Positions 6,331 through 48,889 of a stretch of DNA of 64,000 bases are shown piece by piece. Within the stretch, counting starts at the first letter, position 1. The number at the start of each line of letters is the position of its first letter. The notes beneath the pieces are model-generated. The model had not been told where the DNA came from. It did not search any database and worked only from the letters and a program-made list of their open reading frames with translations. Made by a program: the position numbers and the translations under genes. This stretch comes from Rhizobium sp. C4 (lineage in GTDB: Bacteria; Pseudomonadota; Alphaproteobacteria; Rhizobiales; Rhizobiaceae): the NCBI RefSeq assembly GCF_021026315.1, contig NZ_JAJNCX010000001.1, positions 310,001 through 374,000 of the forward strand. Reading direction: 5' to 3'.

Positions 6331-6906
6331 ATGCCTCTCGACCTCAGCAGACGCAAGTTTATATTTGTCTCACTCGCGCTGACTGCGCCTCTGGCTGCGT
6401 GCAATACAACTGCGCCCGCCTCCGGCGAATTCAGCCAGTCGCTCATGGCGCCCTACCGGCTCGATTCCGGTGACCGTCTGCGCATCACCGTCTTTGATCA
6501 GCCGAGCCTCACCAATACATACAGTGTCGACCAGTCCGGCTACATCGCCTTCCCGCTGATCGGTTCGGTCGTTGCGCGCGGCAAGACGATGCAGGAGCTT
6601 GAGGTGGCCATTGCTGCGCAATTGCGCAAGGGCTATCTGCGCGATCCGGACGTGACGGTCGAGGTCGATCGCTATAGACCCATCTATGTCATGGGCGAAG
6701 TCGGCCAGCCGGGACAATATTCCTATGCCCCCGGCATGACCGTGCAGAATGCGGTGGCCGCAGCCGGTGGCTTCACGCCGCGCGCGCTGCAGTCCGGTGC
6801 CGACATTACGCGCAAGCTCAACGGGCGCGTCCTGACCGGACGTGTCGCCATCACCGACGCGATCCTGGCAGGCGATACGATCTACGTACGCGAACGTCTG
6901 TTCTGA
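6331..6906 (+). CDS. Wza-type outer membrane polysaccharide export lipoprotein
   Basis: A 191-residue protein with a Poly_export domain (about residues 40-115, LDSGDRLRITVFDQPSL) and one SLBB-like domain (about 117-190, YVMGEVGQPGQYSYAPGM). It would form the periplasmic/outer-membrane exit channel for the polysaccharide. The signal peptide ends in the lipobox LAAC (Cys24) but opens with SRRKFIF, a good twin-arginine motif (residues 6-12), so Tat export before lipidation is possible. It is shorter than E. coli Wza (about 380 residues) but normal for the alphaproteobacterial class with a single SLBB. First gene of the rightward run export-GT4-phosphotransferase-polymerase. Confidence 0.92.
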   Translation: MPLDLSRRKFIFVSLALTAPLAACNTTAPASGEFSQSLMAPYRLDSGDRLRITVFDQPSLTNTYSVDQSGYIAFPLIGSVVARGKTMQELEVAIAAQLRKGYLRDPDVTVEVDRYRPIYVMGEVGQPGQYSYAPGMTVQNAVAAAGGFTPRALQSGADITRKLNGRVLTGRVAITDAILAGDTIYVRERLF

Positions 6907-8171: not shown

Positions 8172-9724
<1,553 letters not shown>

Positions 9725-9728
<4 letters not shown>

Positions 9729-10966
9729 CCACGCTTGACGCCATGGGTGGCGGGACCTTCCGCCCGCGACTTGCCACGTTCCGGTTCCTGGGATCGGCGC
9801 TGCTGGTGCTTGGCGTCTTCCTGACCGGGTTCGTCATCCGCGAACCGGCACCGACCGACGCGGTCATCGCCCTGCTTCTGGGGCTATGGTTCGTCCTGGG
9901 CCTGAAGCTGACGCGCGGCACCGGTCCGCTTGCCATGCTTCTGATCGCCGTCGAGACGGGCTGCCTGCTTTCGCTGACGCAGATGAACGATGTCGCCGGC
10001 GGCTTCGTCTATTTCGGCGTCAGCGCGTTCCTGGCGCTCACGGCGATCTTCTATGCTGCGATCTTCGAAGATCGCTACGAGCGCATGGAGCTGATGTTCA
10101 AGGCCTGGACGGCAGCGGCCGTCATTACCTCCCTGCTCGGCATCCTTGGCTATTTCCACGCCTTTCCCGGCTCCGAAGTCTTCACCCGCTATGATCGGGC
10201 CATGGGCGCCTTCAAGGACCCCAACGTCTTCGGCCCCTATCTCGTCGCCCCTGCCCTCTATCTCATCCATGGCATCCTGACCGGAAAGACCTATCACCTG
10301 CCATTGCGGGCGATCTCGCTGCTGATCATCACGCTCGGCCTGCTGCTCGCCTTTTCGCGCGCAGCCTGGGGCCTCTATGTCTTTGCGGCGGCAATGCTGG
10401 TCATGATCATGCTTCTGAAGGAGCGGACCTCAGCGTTTCGCCTGAAGATTCTGCTGCTCGCCCTCGCGGGCGTCGCACTCATGGTCGCGGCCATCGTGAT
10501 CGCGCTGCAGTTTCAACAGGTGGCAGACCTCTTCTCCGCCCGCACCCAGCTTGTCCAGTCCTATGACGGCGGCCATCTCGGCCGCTTCGAGCGGCATCGG
10601 CTGGGTTTCATGATGGCGATGGAAAAGCCGCTCGGCATCGGCCCGCTGGTTTTCAGCACGATCTTCCCCGAGGACGAACACAATATCTGGCTGAAAATGC
10701 TGACCACCTACGGCTGGCTTGGCTTTGTCAGCTACATCACGCTGATCGTGTGGACGGTCGTTGCCGGCTTCCGCATCCTGCTGCGCAATCGCCCCTGGCA
10801 GCCCTACCTGATGATCGCCTGGATCGTTCTGGTCGGCCATGTCGGGATCGGCAACGTGATCGACACCGATCACTGGCGGCACTTCTACATGATACTCGGG
10901 ATCATCTGGGGCTGCCGGGCGCTGGAGATGAACTATCAGCGGCAGCAGGCGCCTTCCAAGGCCTGA
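9725..10966 (+). CDS. O-antigen ligase/polymerase (Wzy/WaaL-like) membrane protein
   Basis: A 413-residue protein with ten or more hydrophobic spans and a large periplasmic loop holding RYDRAMGAFKDPNVFGPYL, the Wzy_C/O-antigen ligase family hallmark (GxFxxPNxxG). In a cluster that also has an initiating transferase, Wzz and Wza proteins, its likely role is polymerase (Wzy) rather than LPS ligase. The TTG at 9725 overlaps the upstream TGA, giving coupled translation; an ATG six codons later (9743) is an alternative start. No Wzx flippase is seen in the window, so that step must be encoded elsewhere. Last gene of the run; tRNA-Pro lies 90 bases downstream on the other strand. Confidence 0.88.
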
Positions 10967-16438: not shown

Positions 16439-18580
16439 TCAGGCAAGCACCGCCAGCAGCAGAAGTGCCACGATATTGGTGATCTTGATCGCCGGGTTGA
16501 CGGCGGGACCGGCCGTGTCCTTGTAGGGGTCGCCCACGGTGTCGCCGGTGACGGAGGCCTTGTGGGCATCGGAACCCTTCATATGGCGGACGCCGTCCTT
16601 GTCGACGAAGCCGTCTTCAAAGGACTTCTTGGCGTTGTCCCAGGCGCCACCGCCCGAGGTCATCGAGATGGCGACGAAGAGGCCGTTGACGATCACGCCG
16701 AGAAGCGATGCGCCGAGCGCCGCGAAAGCCGAGGCCTTCGAGCCGGAGATCAGCAGCACGCCGAAATAGACGACGAGCGGCGCCAGCACCGGTAGCAGCG
16801 ACGGGACGATCATTTCACGGATCGCCGCCTTGGTCAGGATGTCGACCGCACGTCCGTAGTCGGGCTTTTCAGTACCCGCCATGATGCCGGGCTTTGCCTT
16901 GAACTGACGACGGACCTCCTCGACGATCGAGCCCGCAGCGCGACCCACCGCCGTCATCGCGATACCGCCGAAGAGGTAGGGGATGAGACCGCCGAAGATC
17001 AGGCCGGCGACGACGTAGGGGTTGGACAGGTCGAACGAGATCGGGCCCATATTGGCGAAATACGGATATTTGTCCGAATGGCTCGCGAAATATTGCAGGT
17101 CGTTCGAATAGGCGGCGAAAAGGACGAGAGCGCCAAGACCGGCCGAACCGATGGCATAGCCCTTGGTGACGGCCTTGGTGGTGTTGCCGACCGCGTCGAG
17201 CGCGTCCGTCACCTTTCTGACTTCCGGCGGCAGTTCCGACATTTCGGCGATGCCGCCGGCGTTGTCGGTGACCGGGCCGAAGGCGTCGAGCGCGACGATC
17301 ATGCCGGCAAGGCCGAGCATGGCCGTGACGGCAATGCCGGTGCCGAAGAGGCCGGCAAGCTGGTAGGTCGAGATGATGCCGCCGACGATGACGATCGCCG
17401 GAAGCGCTGTCGATTCCAGCGAGACGGCAAGGCCCTGGATCACGTTGGTGCCATGACCGGTCACCGAGGCCTGCGAGATCGAGTTGACCGGCCGCTTGTT
17501 GGTGCCCGTGTAATACTCGGTGATCACGACGATGAGCGCCGTCACCACGAGGCCGACGAGACCGGAGATGAAGAGGTTTTTGCCGGTGACGACAAGGCCG
17601 TTCACGGTGCCCACCTCGCCCCAGCCGATGGTGAGCGACGTGGCGGCTCCCAGGCTGACGATCGAGAGAAGGCCGGTGACGATCAGGCCTCTATACAGTG
17701 CGCCCATGATCGAATTGTTGGAACCGAGCTTCACGAAGAAGGTGCCGATGATCGAGGTGATGATCGAGCCGCCGCAGATGGCAAGCGGATAGATCATCGT
17801 GCTCGACAGCACCTGGCTTCCGGCAAAGAAGATCGCGGCCAGCACCATGGTTGCGACAACCGAGACGGCATAGGTCTCGAAAAGGTCGGCCGCCATGCCG
17901 GCGCAGTCGCCGACATTGTCGCCCACGTTGTCGGCGATGGTGGCCGGGTTGCGCGGATCGTCTTCCGGAATGCCGGCCTCGACCTTGCCGACGAGGTCGC
18001 CGCCGACATCCGCGCCCTTGGTGAAGATGCCGCCGCCCAGACGGGCGAAGATGGAGATGAGCGAGGCGCCGAAGCCCAGCGATACCAGCGCATCGATGAC
18101 TTCACGCGAGCCCGGTTCGTGGTGCAGCGGGCCGGTCAGGATATAGTAGTAGACCGAGACGCCGAGAAGCGCGAGGCCGGCCACCAGCATGCCGGTGATG
18201 GCGCCCGACTTGAAGGCGATGTCCAGGCCGCCGGCAAGACTTTTGGACGAGGCCTGCGCGGTGCGCACGTTGGCGCGCACCGAAACGTGCATGCCGATGA
18301 AACCGGCTGCCCCCGAAAGCACTGCGCCGATCAGGAAACCGATGGCGGCCGTTCCGGACAGAAGCAACCATGCCGCAATGAACACGATGACGCCGACTAT
18401 GGCGATCGTCTTGTACTGCCGTGTGAGATAGGCTTGCGCTCCCTCGCGGATATAACCCGCGATTTCCCGCATTCTTTCATTACCCTGGTCGGCAGCCAAA
18501 ACAGACTGCGTGGCCCATATCGCATAGACCACAGACAACAAACCACATGCAATCACGCCGAATAGTATCGTCATTCGCAA
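16439..18580 (-). CDS. hppA: Membrane-bound proton-pumping pyrophosphatase, K+-independent type
   Basis: A 713-residue integral membrane enzyme with about 16 spans. It couples PPi hydrolysis to H+ translocation into the periplasm or into acidocalcisome-like bodies. The PPi/Mg site motifs are present: [40 protein letters not shown] and [17 protein letters not shown]. The segment [18 protein letters not shown] carries Lys at the position that distinguishes K+-independent from K+-dependent enzymes (Ala there), which supports the subtype. Length is standard. It converges on bamE with a shared terminator. The upstream MFS gene is 150 bases away in the same direction. Confidence 0.96.
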
Positions 18581-41364: not shown

Positions 41365-42672
41365 ATGATCCCGCGCTACTCCCGCCCTGAAATGGTGGCC
41401 ATCTGGTCGCAGGAAACCAAGTTCCGCATCTGGTTCGAGATCGAGGCCCATGCCTGCTTCGCGCTCGCAGATCTCGGCGTCATCCCCAAGGAGGCCGCGC
41501 AGAACATCTGGGACAAGGGTTCCGCCGCCAACTTCGACGTTGCCAAGATCGACGAGATCGAGGCTGTCACCAAGCATGACGTGATTGCCTTCCTCACCCA
41601 TCTGGCGGAATTCATCGGTCCGGACTCGCGCTTCGTGCATCAGGGCATGACCTCGTCGGACGTGCTGGACACGACCTTCAACATCCAGCTCGTCCGCGCC
41701 GCCGACATTCTGCTGGCCGACATGGACAAGCTGCTGGCTGCGCTGAAGAAGCGCGCCTTCGAGCACAAGGACACGGTGCGCATCGGCCGTTCGCATGGCA
41801 TCCATGCCGAGCCGACGACGATGGGCCTGACCTTTGCCCGTTTCTATGCCGAGATGAGCCGCAACCGCGACCGTCTGGTTGCCGCGCGCGCTGAAGTCGC
41901 GACCGGCGCGATCTCGGGCGCTGTCGGCACGTTTGCCAATATCGACCCGAGCGTCGAGGAACATGTCTGCGAAAAGCTCGGCCTCAAGCCCGAGCCGATC
42001 TCGACGCAGGTTATTCCGCGCGACCGTCATGCGATGTTCTTTGCGACGCTCGGCGTCATCGCCTCGTCGATCGAAAACGTCGCCATCGAAATCCGCCACA
42101 TGCAGCGCACGGAAGTTCTGGAAGCGGAAGAGTTCTTCTCGCCCGGCCAGAAGGGGTCGTCGGCCATGCCGCACAAGCGCAATCCGGTTCTGACGGAAAA
42201 CCTCACCGGTCTCGCCCGCCTCGTGCGCATGTCGGTGGTGCCGGCGCTGGAAAACGTGGCGCTCTGGCATGAGCGCGACATTTCGCACTCCTCCGTCGAA
42301 CGCGGCATCGGCCCGGACACGACGATCACGCTCGATTTCGCGCTGAACCGGCTCGCCGGCGTTGTCGAGAAGCTGGTGATCTATCCGGAAAACATGCTGA
42401 AGAACATGAACAAGTTCAAGGGCCTGGTGATGAGCCAGCGCGTTCTTCTGGCCCTCACCCAGGCCGGCGTGTCGCGTGAGGACAGCTATCGCCTCGTCCA
42501 GCGCAATGCGATGAAGGTCTGGGAAAAGGGTGCCGACTTCCTGGAAGAACTGCTCGGCGACGACGAGGTTCGTACTGCCCTTTCGGAAGAGGACATCCGC
42601 GAGAAGTTCGACCTCGGCTATCACACCAAGCATGTCGACACGATCTTCCGCCGGGTCTTCGGCGAGGCGTAA
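41365..42672 (+). CDS. purB: Adenylosuccinate lyase
   Basis: A 435-residue fumarase-superfamily enzyme acting twice in purine synthesis. The signature loop is GQKGSSAMPHKRNPVLTENL; THLAEFIGPDSRFVHQGMTSSD and SHGIHAEPTTMGL are the other active-site segments. ATG 41365 is the family start. The last 46 codons have a diverged second copy at 43565-43708 beyond the following SDR gene, an unusual arrangement. A terminator follows 24 bases after the stop. Confidence 0.97.
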   Translation: MIPRYSRPEMVAIWSQETKFRIWFEIEAHACFALADLGVIPKEAAQNIWDKGSAANFDVAKIDEIEAVTKHDVIAFLTHLAEFIGPDSRFVHQGMTSSDVLDTTFNIQLVRAADILLADMDKLLAALKKRAFEHKDTVRIGRSHGIHAEPTTMGLTFARFYAEMSRNRDRLVAARAEVATGAISGAVGTFANIDPSVEEHVCEKLGLKPEPISTQVIPRDRHAMFFATLGVIASSIENVAIEIRHMQRTEVLEAEEFFSPGQKGSSAMPHKRNPVLTENLTGLARLVRMSVVPALENVALWHERDISHSSVERGIGPDTTITLDFALNRLAGVVEKLVIYPENMLKNMNKFKGLVMSQRVLLALTQAGVSREDSYRLVQRNAMKVWEKGADFLEELLGDDEVRTALSEEDIREKFDLGYHTKHVDTIFRRVFGEA

Positions 42673-42696
42673 GCCTTTCTGCAAAAGCCTGAATTG

Positions 42697-42732
42697 AAGC
42701 CGGTAGTGCCAAGCTGCCGGCTTCTTTCGTTT
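42697..42732 (+). terminator. Rho-independent terminator of purB
   Basis: A 10-bp stem AAGCCGGTAG/CTGCCGGCTT (one G-T pair) with a 7-base loop, followed by CTTTCGTTT. It separates purB from the SDR gene and shows that the latter needs its own promoter. Confidence 0.75.
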
Positions 42733-42758
42733 GACGACTCGCCCTGACCTTCTATCGT
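42731..42758 (+). promoter_or_regulatory. Candidate sigma-70 promoter of the SDR gene
   Basis: TTGACG and TATCGT are separated by 16 bases, directly after the purB terminator and 28 bases before the SDR start codon. The -10 box is imperfect, so this is a by-eye call. Confidence 0.4.
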
Positions 42759-42786
42759 GCTTTCAGTAACATCAGGAGTTTCTGAC

Positions 42787-43554
42787 ATGGCAGGACGTTT
42801 GGCAGGCAAGGTCGCAATCGTTTCGGGTGGAGCCACAGGCATGGGCGGGGCATCGTCCAGCCTGTTTGCGGCGGAAGGCGCAAAGGTCGCGATCATCGAC
42901 CACAATGCGGAGGCAGGTGCGGCCAAGGTTGCGGAAATTGAAGCGGCCGGTGGCGTCGCGATGTTCCAGCAGGCGGATGTGTCGAAGGCCGATGAGGTCA
43001 ACGCTGCCGTGAAGGCCATCGAGGCGGCATACGGGCCGGTCACGGTGCTGTTCAATCATGCCGGCACGATCGTCATCAAGCCCTTCCTTGAGACGACCGA
43101 GGAGGAATGGGACTGGCTGCATGATGTGAACGTCAAGTCGATGTTCCTGATGACCAAGGCCGTGCTTCCGGGGATGATTGCTTCTGGCGGCGGGTCGATC
43201 GTCTGCACCTCCTCCATCTCCGCAGTCGCGGCGACGCCCATGGAAGTGCTTTACGATACGACCAAGGGGGCCGTGCATATGTTTGCCCGCGCCATTGCCG
43301 TCGAATTCCGCGACCGCAACATCCGCTGCAACGCCGTCTGCCCCGGTTTCGTGCGCACGCCGCACGGGCTTCGCGAAGTGACGGACTTGCAGGCACTCGG
43401 CGTCGATGTCTCGGAAGCAGCGCTTGCCGCGCAGCAGGGCCGGATCTGCGAGCCGGAAGAGGTGGCAAAAGCCGCCCTCTTCCTCGCCTCCGACGATGCG
43501 AGCTTCGTCAATGGGGCGCATCTCTTCGTGGACAATGGCTTCACCGCGCTTTGA
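42787..43554 (+). CDS. Short-chain dehydrogenase/reductase
   Basis: A 255-residue classical SDR. The cofactor loop reads IVSGGATGMGGASS, with Ser in place of the usual Thr and GMG for GIG. The NHAG segment (LFNHAGTIVIK) and the catalytic Ser...Tyr-x3-Lys in CTSSISAV and VLYDTTKGAVHMF are present, and AVCPGFVRTPHG follows. An NAD(P)-dependent alcohol or sugar oxidoreductase is likely; the substrate is unknown. AGGAG before ATG 42787 sets the start. It sits between purB and a diverged copy of the purB 3' end, which suggests insertion into the purB downstream region. Confidence 0.92.
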   Translation: MAGRLAGKVAIVSGGATGMGGASSSLFAAEGAKVAIIDHNAEAGAAKVAEIEAAGGVAMFQQADVSKADEVNAAVKAIEAAYGPVTVLFNHAGTIVIKPFLETTEEEWDWLHDVNVKSMFLMTKAVLPGMIASGGGSIVCTSSISAVAATPMEVLYDTTKGAVHMFARAIAVEFRDRNIRCNAVCPGFVRTPHGLREVTDLQALGVDVSEAALAAQQGRICEPEEVAKAALFLASDDASFVNGAHLFVDNGFTAL

Positions 43555-43564
43555 TCATGGACGA

Positions 43565-43708
43565 TGCGCGGATTTCCTGGAGAAACTGCCTGCCGACGAA
43601 GGGGGTCGCGCAGCACTGTCCGAACAAGAAATCCGCGAGACGTTCGAGCTCGGCAATTGCACCAAGCATGTCGACACGATCTTTCGCCGGGTCTTCGGTG
43701 AGGCGTAA
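43565..43708 (+). pseudogene. Remnant of a second purB 3' end (46 codons plus stop)
   Basis: This segment has no start of its own and encodes ADFLEKLPADEGG through TKHVDTIFRRVFGEA, aligning without gaps to the last 46 codons of purB (42532-42672). By hand count 115 of 141 bases and 33 of 46 residues agree; identity continues through the stop codon into GCCT. Many differences are third-position or conservative, so the copy diverged as a working gene end rather than as a recent duplicate. It lies ten bases after the SDR stop. It is a fossil of recombination or of an incoming purB homologue. Confidence 0.85.
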
Positions 43709-43723
43709 GCCTGTTTAATTAGC

Positions 43724-43741
43724 GATTGATACATATCAATC
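43724..43741. promoter_or_regulatory. 18-base perfect palindrome before the EF-hand gene (candidate operator)
   Basis: GATTGATA-CA-TATCAATC, two perfect 8-base arms with a 2-base centre, 60 bases before the EF-hand start codon and directly after the purB remnant. The AT-rich dyad with ATA-x2-TAT centre resembles binding sites of ArsR-type or similar winged-helix repressors. No such regulator gene is in the window. Confidence 0.5.
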
Positions 43742-43800: not shown

Positions 43801-44262
43801 ATGTCAAACTACACTCGACAGGCACTTGCAACGGCATTCGCCTTATCCCTTCTGGCGGGCGGTGCGGTCGCGCAGCAAGGCGCCGGTGCGGGGCGTATGG
43901 GACCGCCCGACAACACGCCCTTCAAAACCATGGATACAGACGGCAACGGACGGCTTTCTCTGGCTGAAGTCGATGCATGGGCGGAAGGTGTCTTTGGCGC
44001 CATGGATTCGAATTCCGACGGCAAGCTGACCCTTGAAGAATACATGGCCGTGCGAATGGGTCCCGGAGCATCGGGAACGGGCAATGCGAAGCGCCAGGCC
44101 CAGATGCAGACGTCAAAGGCAGGTCGCTTCAAAACCATGGACACCGATCATGACGGAATGGTCAGTCACGACGAGTTCATCGCTGCGGCACATGCCCGCT
44201 TCAATGCCGCAGGCGGTCAGAAGGGTGGCGTCGGCAGAAAGAACTGGATGAAATCCCAGTAG
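43801..44262 (+). CDS. Exported EF-hand calcium-binding protein
   Basis: A 153-residue protein with a Sec signal peptide (about residues 1-25, cleavage after AVAQ-like site). Three EF-hand loops follow: residues 45-56 (DTDGNGRLSLAE), 69-80 (DSNSDGKLTLEE) and 114-125 (DTDHDGMVSHDE), all with complete Ca2+ ligands. The linker between loops 2 and 3 is rich in Gly, Ala, Gln and Met. A periplasmic or secreted Ca2+ buffer or sensor is likely. GGAGAAAG precedes the ATG but lies in a hairpin. It is followed by its own terminator, so it is a one-gene unit ahead of the RND operon. Confidence 0.88.
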   Translation: MSNYTRQALATAFALSLLAGGAVAQQGAGAGRMGPPDNTPFKTMDTDGNGRLSLAEVDAWAEGVFGAMDSNSDGKLTLEEYMAVRMGPGASGTGNAKRQAQMQTSKAGRFKTMDTDHDGMVSHDEFIAAAHARFNAAGGQKGGVGRKNWMKSQ

Positions 44263-44414: not shown

Positions 44415-44615
44415 ATGACACTCGACCGCGCCGTTCTCGCCTTTGCCGGCATCATGACCCTTCTTTCGGTCCTGCTGACCGTTTTCGTATCCCCCTATTT
44501 CGTCTGGTTTACAGTCTTCATCGGGGCTAACCTCTTACAATCCGCATTCACCGGGTTCTGCCCGGCTGCGATGATCTTCAAGCGGTTCGGCATCAAGGCC
44601 GGCTGCGCATTCTGA
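44415..44615 (+). CDS. DUF2892 (YgaP-type) small inner membrane protein
   Basis: A 66-residue protein MTLDRAVLAFAGIMTLLSVL with two hydrophobic spans and the family's FTGFCPAAMIFKRFGIKAGC end, containing two cysteines (FCPA and AGC). DUF2892 is the membrane part of the E. coli YgaP rhodanese, and stand-alone copies accompany sulfur-stress or efflux operons. ATG 44415 follows GGAG; an in-frame ATG at 44352 would run through the palindrome. It precedes the RND adaptor by 12 bases and is surely in the same operon. Confidence 0.88.
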   Translation: MTLDRAVLAFAGIMTLLSVLLTVFVSPYFVWFTVFIGANLLQSAFTGFCPAAMIFKRFGIKAGCAF

Positions 44616-44627
44616 AGGACTGCCTCG

Positions 44628-45596
44628 ATGCAAAAGACATGGATGGTCGCCGGCCTGCTGGCGCTCGCGAACCCGGCGCTGGCCGGCTCGCTCACGCTGC
44701 AGCCGACCGACATGACCGAGTGGAAAGCCGTTTACGGCCAGGTTGAGGCCAAGGACACGGTGCCGGCACGCGCGCGCATTGGCGGCGTGATCACCGAGCT
44801 CACCGTCACCGAAGGCGATGTTGTGAAGGCCGGGCAGACGATTGCGGTCGTGCGCGACGACAAGATCGACTTCCAGCTGGCCGCCTATGACGCGCAGCTG
44901 AAGGCGCTTGAAACGCAGCTTGCCAATGCACAGTCAGAGCTTGCCCGTGGCACGGCGCTGGTCGGCAAGGGCATCACAACCCAGCAGCAACTCGACCAGC
45001 TCAAGACCAGCGTCGATGTTCTGGGCAGCCAGATCGTGGCTCTGACTGCGCAGCGCTCCGTCTCTGTCGAACAGCAGAAGGAAGGCGATGTGCTGGCACC
45101 GGCCAATGGGCGTGTGCTGCAGGTTCCCGTGACCAAGGGTGCGGTCATCATGGGCGGCGAGCCGGTGGCGACCATCGGCGGTGGCGGCTTCTTCCTGCGT
45201 CTTGCCATTCCCGAACGGCATGCGAGCGCGCTGAAACAGGGCGCGAGCATTCACATCTCCGCCGGCGGGGCCAAGGAAACGGGCAAGCTCGTCAAGATCT
45301 ATCCGGAAATCACCAATGGCCGTGTCGCCGCTGACGTTGAGGTGGCCAAGCTCAATTCCGATTTCGTCAATGCCCGCGTGCTGGTGGAAATTCCGGTGGC
45401 GACGCGCAAGGCGCTTCTCGTGCCGCAAGCAGCAATCGTCACCCGCTCCGGCATCGATTTTGTCAGCGTCGAAGAGAGCGGCAAGTCTGTCGAGCGTGCC
45501 GTCATCCTTGGCGAAAAGATGGAAGACAGCAATCCGCCCATGGTCGAGGTTCTGACCGGTCTGAAAGCTGGCGATGCCGTGGTGACACCGAAATGA
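44628..45596 (+). CDS. RND efflux periplasmic adaptor protein
   Basis: A 322-residue membrane-fusion protein with an N-terminal signal (MQKTWMVAGLLALANPALAG). It has a biotinyl-lipoyl half domain (ARARIGGVITELTVTEGDVV), a short alpha-hairpin of about 55 residues (FQLAAYDAQLKALETQLANA), the second lipoyl half (VLAPANGRVLQVPVTKGAVI) and a beta-barrel (IPERHASALKQGASIHIS). It links the permease to an outer membrane channel. No TolC-like gene is in the operon. Its stop overlaps the permease start by four bases. Confidence 0.92.
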   Translation: MQKTWMVAGLLALANPALAGSLTLQPTDMTEWKAVYGQVEAKDTVPARARIGGVITELTVTEGDVVKAGQTIAVVRDDKIDFQLAAYDAQLKALETQLANAQSELARGTALVGKGITTQQQLDQLKTSVDVLGSQIVALTAQRSVSVEQQKEGDVLAPANGRVLQVPVTKGAVIMGGEPVATIGGGGFFLRLAIPERHASALKQGASIHISAGGAKETGKLVKIYPEITNGRVAADVEVAKLNSDFVNARVLVEIPVATRKALLVPQAAIVTRSGIDFVSVEESGKSVERAVILGEKMEDSNPPMVEVLTGLKAGDAVVTPK

Positions 45597-48500
45597 CCGA
45601 CGATAACAACAAGAATCCAACCACGCCGGGCCATGAAGAGCCAGGCCCCTGGCCGGTTGAGCATCATCATGAAGACGCCGAGGATGCGGGCATGCGGGAT
45701 CTCGGCATTGCCGGGCGTCTCACCAAGGCCTTCATCAAGTCGCCGCTCACCCCCCTCTTCCTGCTGGCCGCCTTCGCCTTCGGGATGGTGGCGCTGATCA
45801 GCCTGCCGCGCGAGGAAGAGCCGCAGATCTCCGTGCCGATGGTCGATATCATCGTGCAGGCGCCGGGGCTGAAGGCGGAAGATGCCGTGAAGCTCGTCAC
45901 CGAGCCGCTGGAAACGGTGGTCAAGAGCATCGACGGCGTCGAGCATGTCTATTCGCAGTCCGGCGACGACAATGTCATGGTCACGGCGCGCTTCAAGGTC
46001 GGCACGTCCTCCGATGCTGCCGTGCTGCGCGTCCATGACAAGGTCATGGCGAACATGGACAAGATCCCGCTCGGCATTCCGCAGCCGATGATCGTCGGGC
46101 GAGGCATTGACGATGTCGCCATCGTCTCGCTGACGCTGTCGCCGAAGTCGGAAGCAGCCGATCGCATTACCGCCAATGACCTCACCCGCATCATGCGCGA
46201 GCTGCGCACCGAAGTCTCGAAGATCGACAATGTTGGCCTGACCTATCTGGTCGGCGAGACGGGCGAGCAGATCCGCATTGCGCCCGATCCGGCCAAGCTT
46301 GCGCTCTATGGCGTGACGCTGCAGCAGCTGGCCGGCAAGGTACAGAGCGCCAACAGCGCCTTCCCCGCCGGCACCGTCCGGAAGGATAATCAGGAACTTG
46401 GCCTGATTGCCGGCGAAACGCTCTCGACGCCCGCCGAGATCGGCAACCTGCTGCTGACATCGCGCGATGGCCGGCCGGTCTATGTCCGCGATGTCGCAAC
46501 CATTTCGCTGACGACGGATACCGCCGACCTGCGTGTCGCGACCGTCACCAAGACTGACAAGGGCGTTGATGGGGGCGTTGAGCGCGTCCCGTCCGTCACG
46601 CTGGCCGTCGCCAAGCGCGCCGGCTCCAATGCGGTGACGGTGGCCGAGGCCGTGCTGGCACGGGTCGAGCTCATGAAGGGCGATCTGATCCCCGGCGACA
46701 TGCATCTGGAAGTCACCCGCAACTATGGCGAAACGGCCAATGAGAAGGCCAACGAGCTGCTCTACCATCTGGGGCTCGCGACAGTTTCGATCATTCTCCT
46801 CGTCTGGCTCGCCATCGGGCGGCGCGAGGCGCTGGTGGTGGCCATCGTCATTCCGGTGACGATCCTGCTGACGCTCTTTGCCTCGAATGTCATGGGCTAT
46901 ACGCTGAACCGCGTTTCGCTCTTCGCGCTCATCTTCTCCATCGGCATTTTGGTCGATGACGCCATTGTCGTCATCGAGAACACGGCGCGGCATTGGGGCA
47001 TGCATGACACGCGGTCCCGCCGGCGTGCGGCCATCGAGGCCGTGGCGGAAGTCGGCAATCCGACGATTGTCGCCACGCTGACCGTGGTAGCAGCCCTCCT
47101 TCCCATGCTCTTCGTCTCGGGCATGATGGGGCCATACATGAGCCCGATCCCGGCCAATGCTTCGGCTGCGATGATCTTCTCCTTCTTCGTCGCCGTGATC
47201 GTCACGCCCTATCTGATGCTGAAGGTCAGCGGCAAGGCGCCCGTTGTCCATCATGACGAGGCGCATGGCGGCAAGCTCGGGCAGCTTTATGCGGCCGTTG
47301 CCCGGCCGATCCTGAAGACGAAGGCGCGCAGCTGGATCTTCCTGCTGGCCGTCGGCGCGCTGACGCTCGGCTCGCTCAGCCTGTTCTATACGAAGCATGT
47401 CACGGTGAAGCTGCTGCCCTTCGACAACAAGTCGGAACTCTCCGTCATGATCGATCTGCCGGAAGGCGCCTCCGTCGAGGCGACCGACCGGGTGGCGCAG
47501 GATATCGCGCGCGTCGTCGTTGACCTGCCTGAGGTCGTCTCCGTGCAGACCCATGCCGGGACCGCCGCGCCCTTCAACTTCAACGGGCTCGTGCGCCACA
47601 GCTATATGCGCGCCCAGCCCTATATGGGCGATGTCGCCGTCAACCTCACCGGCAAGGGCGAGCGCGACCGCTCGTCCCACCAGATCGCGCTGGACATCCG
47701 CCAGCGCATCGCAAAGCTTTCGGTTCCTGCCGGCACGAGCCTGAAGGTGGTCGAGCCGCCGCCGGGGCCGCCGGTCATGGCGACGCTGCTTGCCGAAATC
47801 TACGGCCCCGATCCGGAAACGCGCCGCAAGGTGGCCGCCCGTGTCGAGGAAGCGTTCCGCAGCGTTCCCTATATTGTCGATATCGACAATTCCTATGGCA
47901 CGCAGGCTGAGCGCGTCCGCCTGACGGTGGATACCGACAAGGCCGAGTTCTTCCATGTCGAGGAAAGCGACGTGTTCAACACGATCTCGATCCTCAATGG
48001 CGGGCAGACAGTCGGCTATTCGCATCGCGGCAACGGCCGTACGCCGATCCCGATCCGGGTTCAGCGGGCCAAGGGCGACCAGCAGCTCAACGAGGCCTTC
48101 CTGACAACGCCGATCCCGGCCAATGTCCTGCCCGGCGGCAATGGCGTGGTCGAGCTGGGCGATGTCGTGAAGGTCACGAACGAGCTCTCCTCCTTCCCCG
48201 TCTTCCGCCACAATGGCCGCAGCGCGGAAATGGTGACGGCGGAGCTCGCCGGTCAGTTCGAGGCACCGCTTTACGGCATGCTTGCGGTGCAGGATGCGCT
48301 CGACAAAATGGATTGGAAGGACCTGCCGAAGCCGGTCATCGCGCTGCATGGCCAGCCGGAAGACGAGCGTCATCCGACGCTACTCTGGGATGGCGAGTGG
48401 GAGGTGACATGGGTCACGTTCCGCGACATGGGTGCGGCCTTCATGGTGGCGCTGCTCGGGATCTATATCCTCGTCGTCGCGCAGTTCGGCTCGTTCAAGC

Positions 48501-48889
48501 TGCCGCTGGTCATCCTGACGCCGGTGCCGCTGACCTTCATCGGCATTCTCGCCGGCCACTGGATGTTCGGTGCGCCCTTCTCGGCGACTTCGATGATCGG
48601 CTTCATTGCGCTGGCCGGCATTATCGTCCGCAACTCGATCCTGCTGGTGGATTTCATCCGCAACAGCGACATGGAAGGTCGGACGATGACCGATGTGCTG
48701 ATCGAGGCCGGTGCGATCCGCTTCAAGCCGATCCTGCTCACCGCGCTGGCCGCCATCATCGGCGCGGCGGTGATCCTGACCGACCCGATCTTTCAAGGGT
48801 TGGCGATCTCGCTACTCTTTGGGCTGGCATCGTCGACCGCGCTGACCGTTCTCGTCATCCCGGCGATCTACCGGGTGCTGCGGACGTGA
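45593..48889 (+). CDS. RND-family efflux permease
   Basis: A 1098-residue inner membrane pump with 12 spans and two large periplasmic loops. The proton-relay Asp pair in helix 4 is visible in IGILVDDAIVVIENTARHW. The N-terminus is extended by about 40 residues of His/Glu-rich cytoplasmic sequence (GPWPVEHHHEDAEDAG). The family resembles the HAE1/acriflavine-type branch rather than CzcA, as the CzcA metal motif is not apparent. Substrate is unknown; the DUF2892 partner and AT-rich operator hint at sulfide, thiol or lipophilic stress (inference). A strong terminator follows. Confidence 0.94.
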   Translation: MTDDNNKNPTTPGHEEPGPWPVEHHHEDAEDAGMRDLGIAGRLTKAFIKSPLTPLFLLAAFAFGMVALISLPREEEPQISVPMVDIIVQAPGLKAEDAVKLVTEPLETVVKSIDGVEHVYSQSGDDNVMVTARFKVGTSSDAAVLRVHDKVMANMDKIPLGIPQPMIVGRGIDDVAIVSLTLSPKSEAADRITANDLTRIMRELRTEVSKIDNVGLTYLVGETGEQIRIAPDPAKLALYGVTLQQLAGKVQSANSAFPAGTVRKDNQELGLIAGETLSTPAEIGNLLLTSRDGRPVYVRDVATISLTTDTADLRVATVTKTDKGVDGGVERVPSVTLAVAKRAGSNAVTVAEAVLARVELMKGDLIPGDMHLEVTRNYGETANEKANELLYHLGLATVSIILLVWLAIGRREALVVAIVIPVTILLTLFASNVMGYTLNRVSLFALIFSIGILVDDAIVVIENTARHWGMHDTRSRRRAAIEAVAEVGNPTIVATLTVVAALLPMLFVSGMMGPYMSPIPANASAAMIFSFFVAVIVTPYLMLKVSGKAPVVHHDEAHGGKLGQLYAAVARPILKTKARSWIFLLAVGALTLGSLSLFYTKHVTVKLLPFDNKSELSVMIDLPEGASVEATDRVAQDIARVVVDLPEVVSVQTHAGTAAPFNFNGLVRHSYMRAQPYMGDVAVNLTGKGERDRSSHQIALDIRQRIAKLSVPAGTSLKVVEPPPGPPVMATLLAEIYGPDPETRRKVAARVEEAFRSVPYIVDIDNSYGTQAERVRLTVDTDKAEFFHVEESDVFNTISILNGGQTVGYSHRGNGRTPIPIRVQRAKGDQQLNEAFLTTPIPANVLPGGNGVVELGDVVKVTNELSSFPVFRHNGRSAEMVTAELAGQFEAPLYGMLAVQDALDKMDWKDLPKPVIALHGQPEDERHPTLLWDGEWEVTWVTFRDMGAAFMVALLGIYILVVAQFGSFKLPLVILTPVPLTFIGILAGHWMFGAPFSATSMIGFIALAGIIVRNSILLVDFIRNSDMEGRTMTDVLIEAGAIRFKPILLTALAAIIGAAVILTDPIFQGLAISLLFGLASSTALTVLVIPAIYRVLRT

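What the first reader, a model, noticed from the sequence alone, without database searches (positions are those of the whole stretch)
42532..43708. SDR gene boxed between purB and a diverged second copy of the purB 3' end
The last 46 codons of purB (42532-42672) recur without gaps at 43568-43708, directly after an SDR gene, with 115 of 141 bases equal by hand count and identity continuing past the stop. The copy is too diverged to be a fresh duplication, and many of its changes are silent or mild, as in a gene end kept under selection. The simplest reading is that a segment carrying the SDR gene and a purB tail from another strain recombined into the purB downstream region. If the purB 3' end is used repeatedly this way, it would be a non-tRNA insertion site in this lineage.
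Basis: partly seen in the sequence, partly recalled or inferred. Interest (0 to 1): 0.75.

Follow-up and report, generated by a model that had tools for sequence, protein, structure and literature searches.

The report
Old recombination scar behind purB
A second, decaying copy of the last 145 bases of the purine gene purB sits about 1 kb downstream, behind a dehydrogenase gene; it looks like an old, functionless recombination scar, also seen in worn-down form in a related species, and not like an active insertion site.

Summary
The repeat is real: 42532-42676 recurs ungapped at 43568-43712, 119 of 145 bases equal. It is neither a fresh import nor under selection. In four of five other genus genomes the same SDR follows purB; G005 has a clear, and G001 a doubtful, worn scrap of the purB end at the same spot before the same EF-hand gene; G002 and G004 lack tail and EF gene. 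The copy matches this genus's own purB genes best. Its 15 private changes fall 5/5/5 over codon positions: neutral decay. In a sister genus purB-SDR and purB-TM-RND pump occur as separate arrangements; the window has both, with the tail at the seam. Best reading: an old recombination joined a purB-SDR block to DNA beginning with a purB 3' end; the displaced tail decayed. No second purB end was found in 99 distinct other purB loci, and no tyrosine integrase on this contig, so an insertion site is not supported. The joining mechanism is inferred; local copying remains the main rival. Interest low.

The parts
41365..42672 (+). purB, adenylosuccinate lyase, intact, 435 aa
   Evidence: NCBIfam TIGR00928 equivalog, 512 bits over cut-off 326
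42532..42676 (+). 3' end of purB: reference copy of the repeat
42696..42724 (+). terminator-like hairpin (12 pairs) between purB and the SDR gene; a similar hairpin is visible by eye in G001, G002 and G004
   Evidence: the scan found 4 such sites in the stretch, shuffles gave 2.4 on average
42787..43554 (+). SDR family oxidoreductase, 255 aa
   Evidence: Pfam PF13561 and PF00106; none of the 25 NCBIfam models shown, of 230, reached its cut-off
43568..43712 (+). decayed second copy of the purB 3' end (pseudogene fragment)
   Evidence: 119 of 145 identical; 15 private changes 5/5/5 over codon positions
43726..43739 (+). FNR/FixK-like palindrome TTGATACATATCAA upstream of the EF-hand gene (name recalled, binding not tested)
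   Evidence: pattern match; the same palindrome visible in G001 and a near form in G005
43801..44262 (+). EF-hand protein, 153 aa; in the genus found only in G000, G001 and G005
44415..44615 (+). small YgaP-like transmembrane protein (called g2)
   Evidence: PF11127
44628..45596 (+). RND efflux periplasmic adaptor
   Evidence: TIGR01730 over cut-off
45593..48889 (+). RND efflux pump
   Evidence: PF00873
49158..50804 (-). acyl-CoA ligase (d1): first gene on the far side, shared with G166, G279, G319 and G384

Best explanation
The second purB end is an old recombination scar. In the ancestor of this genus clade, two versions of the region downstream of purB were joined: purB with its terminator followed by the SDR gene, and a stretch beginning inside a purB 3' end and continuing into EF-hand gene, TM protein, RND pump and acyl-CoA ligase. 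One crossover was homologous within purB; the other end was a non-homologous join of SDR end to purB tail, or equivalently a single crossover by a circular fragment carrying a purB end plus the SDR. Functional purB stayed whole; the displaced tail had no function and has decayed neutrally, to a 145-nt remnant in the window species, about 60 nt in G005, a doubtful 19-nt trace in G001, and nothing, together with the EF-hand gene, in G002 and G004. Shown: the repeat, its neutral decay, the scrap at the same place in G005, and the two separate arrangements in a sister genus. Inferred: the joining event, its direction and its enzymology.
For: Ungapped repeat flanking the SDR. Same SDR after purB in 4 of 5 other genus genomes. 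At the SDR-EF seam G005 has a scrap whose score none of 2000 base shuffles reaches, against either copy; G001 has a 16-of-19 match reached by 15 of 2000 shuffles against the copy and 74 of 2000 against purB. Seam position: G166 has purB-TM-adaptor-RND-ligase with no SDR, EF gene or second tail beside it; G279, G384 and G394 have purB directly followed by the SDR, without the pump and without a second tail in the stretches read. The copy's best matches among 394 genomes are the genus's own purB tails, 81-83%. Private changes 5/5/5. Its private rate, 15/135 = 0.11, is slightly below half the uncorrected fourfold-site divergence between G000 and the other four species (0.26-0.31 in purB, 0.30-0.37 in SDR), so it has been silent since about the genus root. 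Concatenated tree: G000 outermost (82/92), G004 with G005 (100/99), for which tail plus EF in the genus ancestor with two losses is the simplest history. Experimental precedent: in E. coli, single crossovers by circles carrying a gene end left 109-950 bp duplications of that end (PMC3240628, passages read).
Against: No genome with purB directly followed by this EF-hand gene was found, so one of the two proposed parents is hypothetical (of 7 EF homologues outside the genus, the 4 whose purB place is listed, G056, G065, G075 and G166, lie elsewhere). The genus's purB is not close to that of the purB-SDR genomes of the sister genus (78-79% to G279), the purB-SDR spacer differs (114 bp in the window, 28 bp in G279), and a six-window scan of purB gives a different nearest relative in almost every window by small margins, so no imported purB end can be made out. 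The tail tree is unresolved. The left junction shows no clear microhomology (by eye) and may have been eroded. The tail goes with EF, not with the SDR, which also fits an EF-side origin. The adaptor gene tree contradicts the species tree by pairing G002 with G004 (84/88).
Confidence: 0.6

Rival explanations
1. Local copying: the purB end was duplicated within the same chromosome (tandem duplication or templated filler at a repaired break) when the EF-hand gene was joined behind the SDR; no second strain's purB is needed.
For: Tail or scrap and EF-hand gene occur together in 3 of 3 (G001's scrap doubtful) and are absent together in 2 of 2 SDR-bearing genus genomes. The copy matches the genus's own purB best. 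Its ending GCGTAAGCC is that of purB in G000 and G001 and was found in 1 of 100 other purB loci. The part right of the tail shows no copy of the purB terminator, as expected of a copied snippet.
Against: It does not explain why the tail lies at the seam between gene orders found separately in G166 and in G279. At codon 15 the copy has GCA; the G at position 43 is found in 69 of 71 outgroup tails and in none of the five genus tails, hinting at a slightly different allele.
Confidence: 0.27
2. Site-specific integration: an integrative element uses the purB 3' end as attachment site; element-borne DNA restores purB and the displaced end remains at the far side, as known for other protein-coding genes (recalled: icd in E. 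coli).
For: Direct repeat of a gene's 3' end flanking cargo. G005 carries a further 876-bp AT-rich insert at the very end of purB.
Against: The cargo is one SDR gene with no recombinase; 9 Phage_integrase matches in the genome, none on this 720-kb contig. No second end in 99 distinct purB loci. Collections: 20 plasmid and 9 phage records match the purB end (64 aa); of the rows listed, 6 are annotated as purB and the rest carried no annotation and were not opened; 2 virus contigs have purB beside a gene transfer agent tail gene. In the sister genus three genomes have the SDR right behind purB and one 1.9 kb behind it, none with a second tail in the stretch read. The G005 insert shows no second purB end of its own.
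Confidence: 0.05
3. Recent import from another genus: SDR plus a foreign purB tail came in together.
For: 18% divergence between the copies.
Against: Best match is the genus's own purB; SDR is 96-97% identical in protein across the five genus genomes with a tree of the same shape as purB and RND; the divergence is explained by neutral decay since about the genus root.
Confidence: 0.05
4. The tail is kept for a function (regulatory element or short peptide).
For: Open frame over 141 nt; differences between the copies are rarer in the last 53 nt (2) than in the first 92 (24), p=0.0005.
Against: Private changes of the copy are 5/5/5 over codon positions and not significantly clustered (13/92 vs 2/43, p=0.14); reduced to scraps or not found in the other four SDR-bearing species.
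Confidence: 0.03

Closest known systems
Duplication of a gene end by single-crossover integration of a circular fragment (E. coli lacZ end; PMC3240628, passages read)
   Same: Direct repeat of a gene's 3' part (109-950 bp there, 145 bp left here) flanking new DNA, no integrase needed.
   Different: There it is a fresh laboratory event; here it is old, diverged and inferred, and the gene is whole.
Homology-facilitated illegitimate recombination (passages read in PMC3240628; PMC5361080 for displaced gene ends in Vibrio T6SS clusters)
   Same: One homologous anchor in a conserved gene, non-homologous other end, displaced 3' remnants left behind the newcomer.
   Different: HFIR generally deletes about 1 kb and mostly leaves 3-10 bp microhomology; here there is a duplication, and no microhomology is visible. 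In Vibrio, immunity genes are retained; here the remnant has no function.
Attachment-site duplication by integrative elements in protein-coding genes (recalled)
   Same: 3' end of a core gene repeated beyond the cargo.
   Different: No recombinase, no element and no recurrence found.

Membership tests
Single-crossover gene-end duplication | Direct repeat of homologous gene end flanking the inserted DNA | tested here: met
Single-crossover gene-end duplication | Empty-site relative lacking insert and repeat | tested here: inconclusive
   G166 has neither SDR nor repeat behind purB but is another genus and lacks the EF-hand gene there
Single-crossover gene-end duplication | RecA-dependent circular donor | not testable with these tools
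   old event
Homology-facilitated illegitimate recombination | 3-10 bp microhomology at the illegitimate join | tested here: inconclusive
   none evident by eye at the SDR-tail join; the join may be eroded
Homology-facilitated illegitimate recombination | Coupled deletion of recipient DNA | tested here: not met
   duplication, not deletion, at the tail
Integrative element in purB | Recombinase gene in or near the cargo | tested here: not met
   only one SDR gene between the repeats; no Phage_integrase match on contig C1; serine recombinases and transposases not searched
Integrative element in purB | Other elements at the same site with the same repeat | tested here: not met
   0 of 100 purB loci (99 distinct, 8 with under 7.5 kb downstream) with a second end within up to 8 kb
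Conserved functional element | Purifying selection on the copy | tested here: not met
   private changes 5/5/5

The most novel reading that the evidence does not exclude
The 3' end of purB serves this lineage as a recurrent integrase-free recombination anchor: cargo (SDR, EF-hand gene, RND pump, the orphan gene in G005, the peroxidase-like gene in G319) is swapped behind a conserved gene by homology on one side, possibly with DNA delivered by the gene transfer agent whose tail gene the genome carries, and decaying purB tails are its footprints.
Probability: 0.1. Interest if true: 0.4.

Novelty: new member of a known kind. Interest (0 to 1): 0.22.

Why it matters
It gives a roughly datable footprint of recombination in a core-gene neighbourhood: the tail decays at a neutral rate and marks the seam between two gene orders. 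It also shows how a pairwise comparison can mimic purifying selection when the changes lie in the functional copy. It does not reveal a new mobile element.

Tried and rejected
A tree of 67 distinct purB tails (135 columns) does not resolve the place of the copy. A six-window nearest-neighbour scan of purB gives no consistent relative and so shows no imported 3' end. Clustering of differences in the first 92 nt was dropped as a sign of conversion or function: it is not significant for changes private to the copy, and the functional genus tails also differ mostly there (9-15 vs 2-3). The ending GCGTAAGCC was first taken as genus-specific; in the genus it is seen at purB of G000 and G001 only, it also occurs in L072, and GCGTAAGC occurs at the purB end of G355, so it is weak evidence. 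The purB-end query found 20 plasmid and 9 phage records and 2 virus contigs; none was shown to be an element ending in purB, but most were not opened. In one search, SDR hits under 50% and RND or adaptor hits under 45% were left out of the printout. Four paper searches were made: 2 papers; one passage read in PMC12607529, on insertion sequences near purB; PMC12997946 not opened; 49 papers, 12 listed; 125, 12 listed; 7; nothing on this site was in the listings of 53, 55 and 56. Passages of PMC2884548 were looked at and not used.

Full report
OBSERVATION. The repeat is exactly as reported: 42532-42672 and 43568-43708 align without gaps, 115 of 141 bases equal, extending to 145 bases with 119 equal. 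The second copy begins 13 bases after the SDR stop codon, keeps an open frame, and ends 4 bases past its own stop, after which the sequences part. Between the copies lie a terminator-like hairpin (42696-42724) and one SDR gene.

THE GENUS. Five other genomes of the genus are held. In G001, G002, G004 and G005 the same SDR (88-90% DNA) follows purB; G003 has another gene order and lacks it. Behind the SDR, G005 carries a scrap of the purB end (aligned over 59 bases of the copy with indels; 0 of 2000 base shuffles reach its score, against the copy or against purB) and G001 a much shorter one (16 of 19 bases; 15 of 2000 shuffles reach it against the copy, 74 of 2000 against purB, so doubtful alone); in both it lies immediately upstream of the EF-hand gene. 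G002 and G004 have no tail above chance (1864 and 423 of 2000 shuffles reach the score against the copy, 624 and 712 against purB) and no EF-hand gene. On a concatenated tree G000 is outermost (82/92, not a firm fork) and G004 pairs with G005 (100/99); the presence of tail plus EF needs at least two changes on it, most simply presence in the ancestor and two losses. The adaptor gene alone pairs G002 with G004 (84/88), unlike purB, SDR and RND, so local exchange among species is possible and may explain the shared absence.

NATURE OF THE COPY. At 15 of 135 sites the copy has a base found in none of the five genus purB tails; these fall 5/5/5 over codon positions, and ten of the bases occur in none of 71 further purB tails (60 distinct). 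The copy is therefore decaying neutrally. The private rate (0.11) is slightly below half the uncorrected fourfold-site divergence of G000 from the other four species (0.26-0.31 in purB, 0.30-0.37 in SDR), which dates the loss of function roughly to the root of the genus.

ORIGIN OF THE COPY. Among 394 family genomes (302 with a match) the best five places, besides the copy itself, are the purB tails of the five SDR-bearing genus genomes (81-83%); the next is 81%. Over 129 nt the margin is small (104-107 matches within the genus, 104 for the best outsider), and a tree of tails is unresolved. A distant donor is thus neither needed nor seen.

GENE ORDER. In a sister genus G166 has purB, TM protein, adaptor, RND pump, acyl-CoA ligase, as in the window but without SDR, tail and EF-hand gene in that stretch (a 48% EF homologue lies elsewhere in G166). 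G279, G384 and G394 have purB directly followed by the SDR (87-89% protein), no pump and no second tail in the stretches read; G319 has the SDR (92%) 1.9 kb behind purB with a peroxidase-like gene between. G395 has the SDR close to purB by its coordinates but was not read. The other four of the nine sister-genus genomes had no SDR match at that cut-off. The window combines both orders and the extra tail lies at their seam. That is the main reason for preferring a recombination scar over a local duplication, but the EF-hand gene, always found with the tail, keeps the rival open.

INSERTION SITE? A second purB end was sought downstream of purB in 100 loci (80 named, 20 unnamed; 99 distinct; up to 8 kb, 8 of them with under 7.5 kb): none, only six short chance-level matches. 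Fourteen family genomes with two matches to the purB end had only second matches of 22-57 nt, none near purB. None of nine Phage_integrase matches in the genome is on this contig. Of the plasmid and phage rows listed, 5 of 15 and 1 of 9 are annotated as purB; the others carried no annotation and were not opened, and 5 plasmid records were not listed. Two virus contigs carry purB beside a GTA tail gene. The interval behind purB is variable: the neighbour d2 was found in 38 of 43 loci, in 37 of them starting between -45 and 2122 bases from the purB end and in G166 at 6534. G005 has an AT-rich 876-bp insert that replaced the last purB codons, without a purB-end repeat of its own. This is ordinary variability.

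MECHANISM. Two documented routes give such a footprint: single crossover by a circularised fragment carrying a gene end (duplications of 109-950 bp in E. coli, PMC3240628, passages) and homology-facilitated illegitimate recombination (same paper; Vibrio T6SS gene ends, PMC5361080, passages). The duplication favours the first. Which copy is the resident one is not decided.

Noticed in passing
L193 (G005), reverse strand, ORF at 16507-17178: An 876-bp AT-rich (45.5% GC) insert between purB and SDR replaces the last purB codons (446 instead of 435 aa) and carries a 224-aa ORF without Pfam or NCBIfam match.
   Followed up: partly
43726-43739: TTGATACATATCAA, an FNR/FixK-like palindrome (name recalled) directly upstream of the EF-hand gene, kept in G001 and nearly in G005.
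   Followed up: no
43801-44262: EF-hand gene with a match (E up to 1e-12) in only 10 of 297 family genomes; weak NCBIfam similarity to lanmodulin, far below cut-off.
   Followed up: no
L290 and L291 (IMG/VR contigs): purB lies next to a gene transfer agent tail gene (GTA_TIM, Rcc01698_C) in two contigs listed as viral; probably bacterial GTA clusters.
   Followed up: partly
G000:C1:703972-704844 (L292): The genome carries a gene transfer agent tail gene (GTA_TIM, E 6.7e-132) on the same contig.
   Followed up: no
L286 (G319), 9134-10759, reverse strand: An animal-haem-peroxidase-like gene between purB and the SDR in a sister genus.
   Followed up: no
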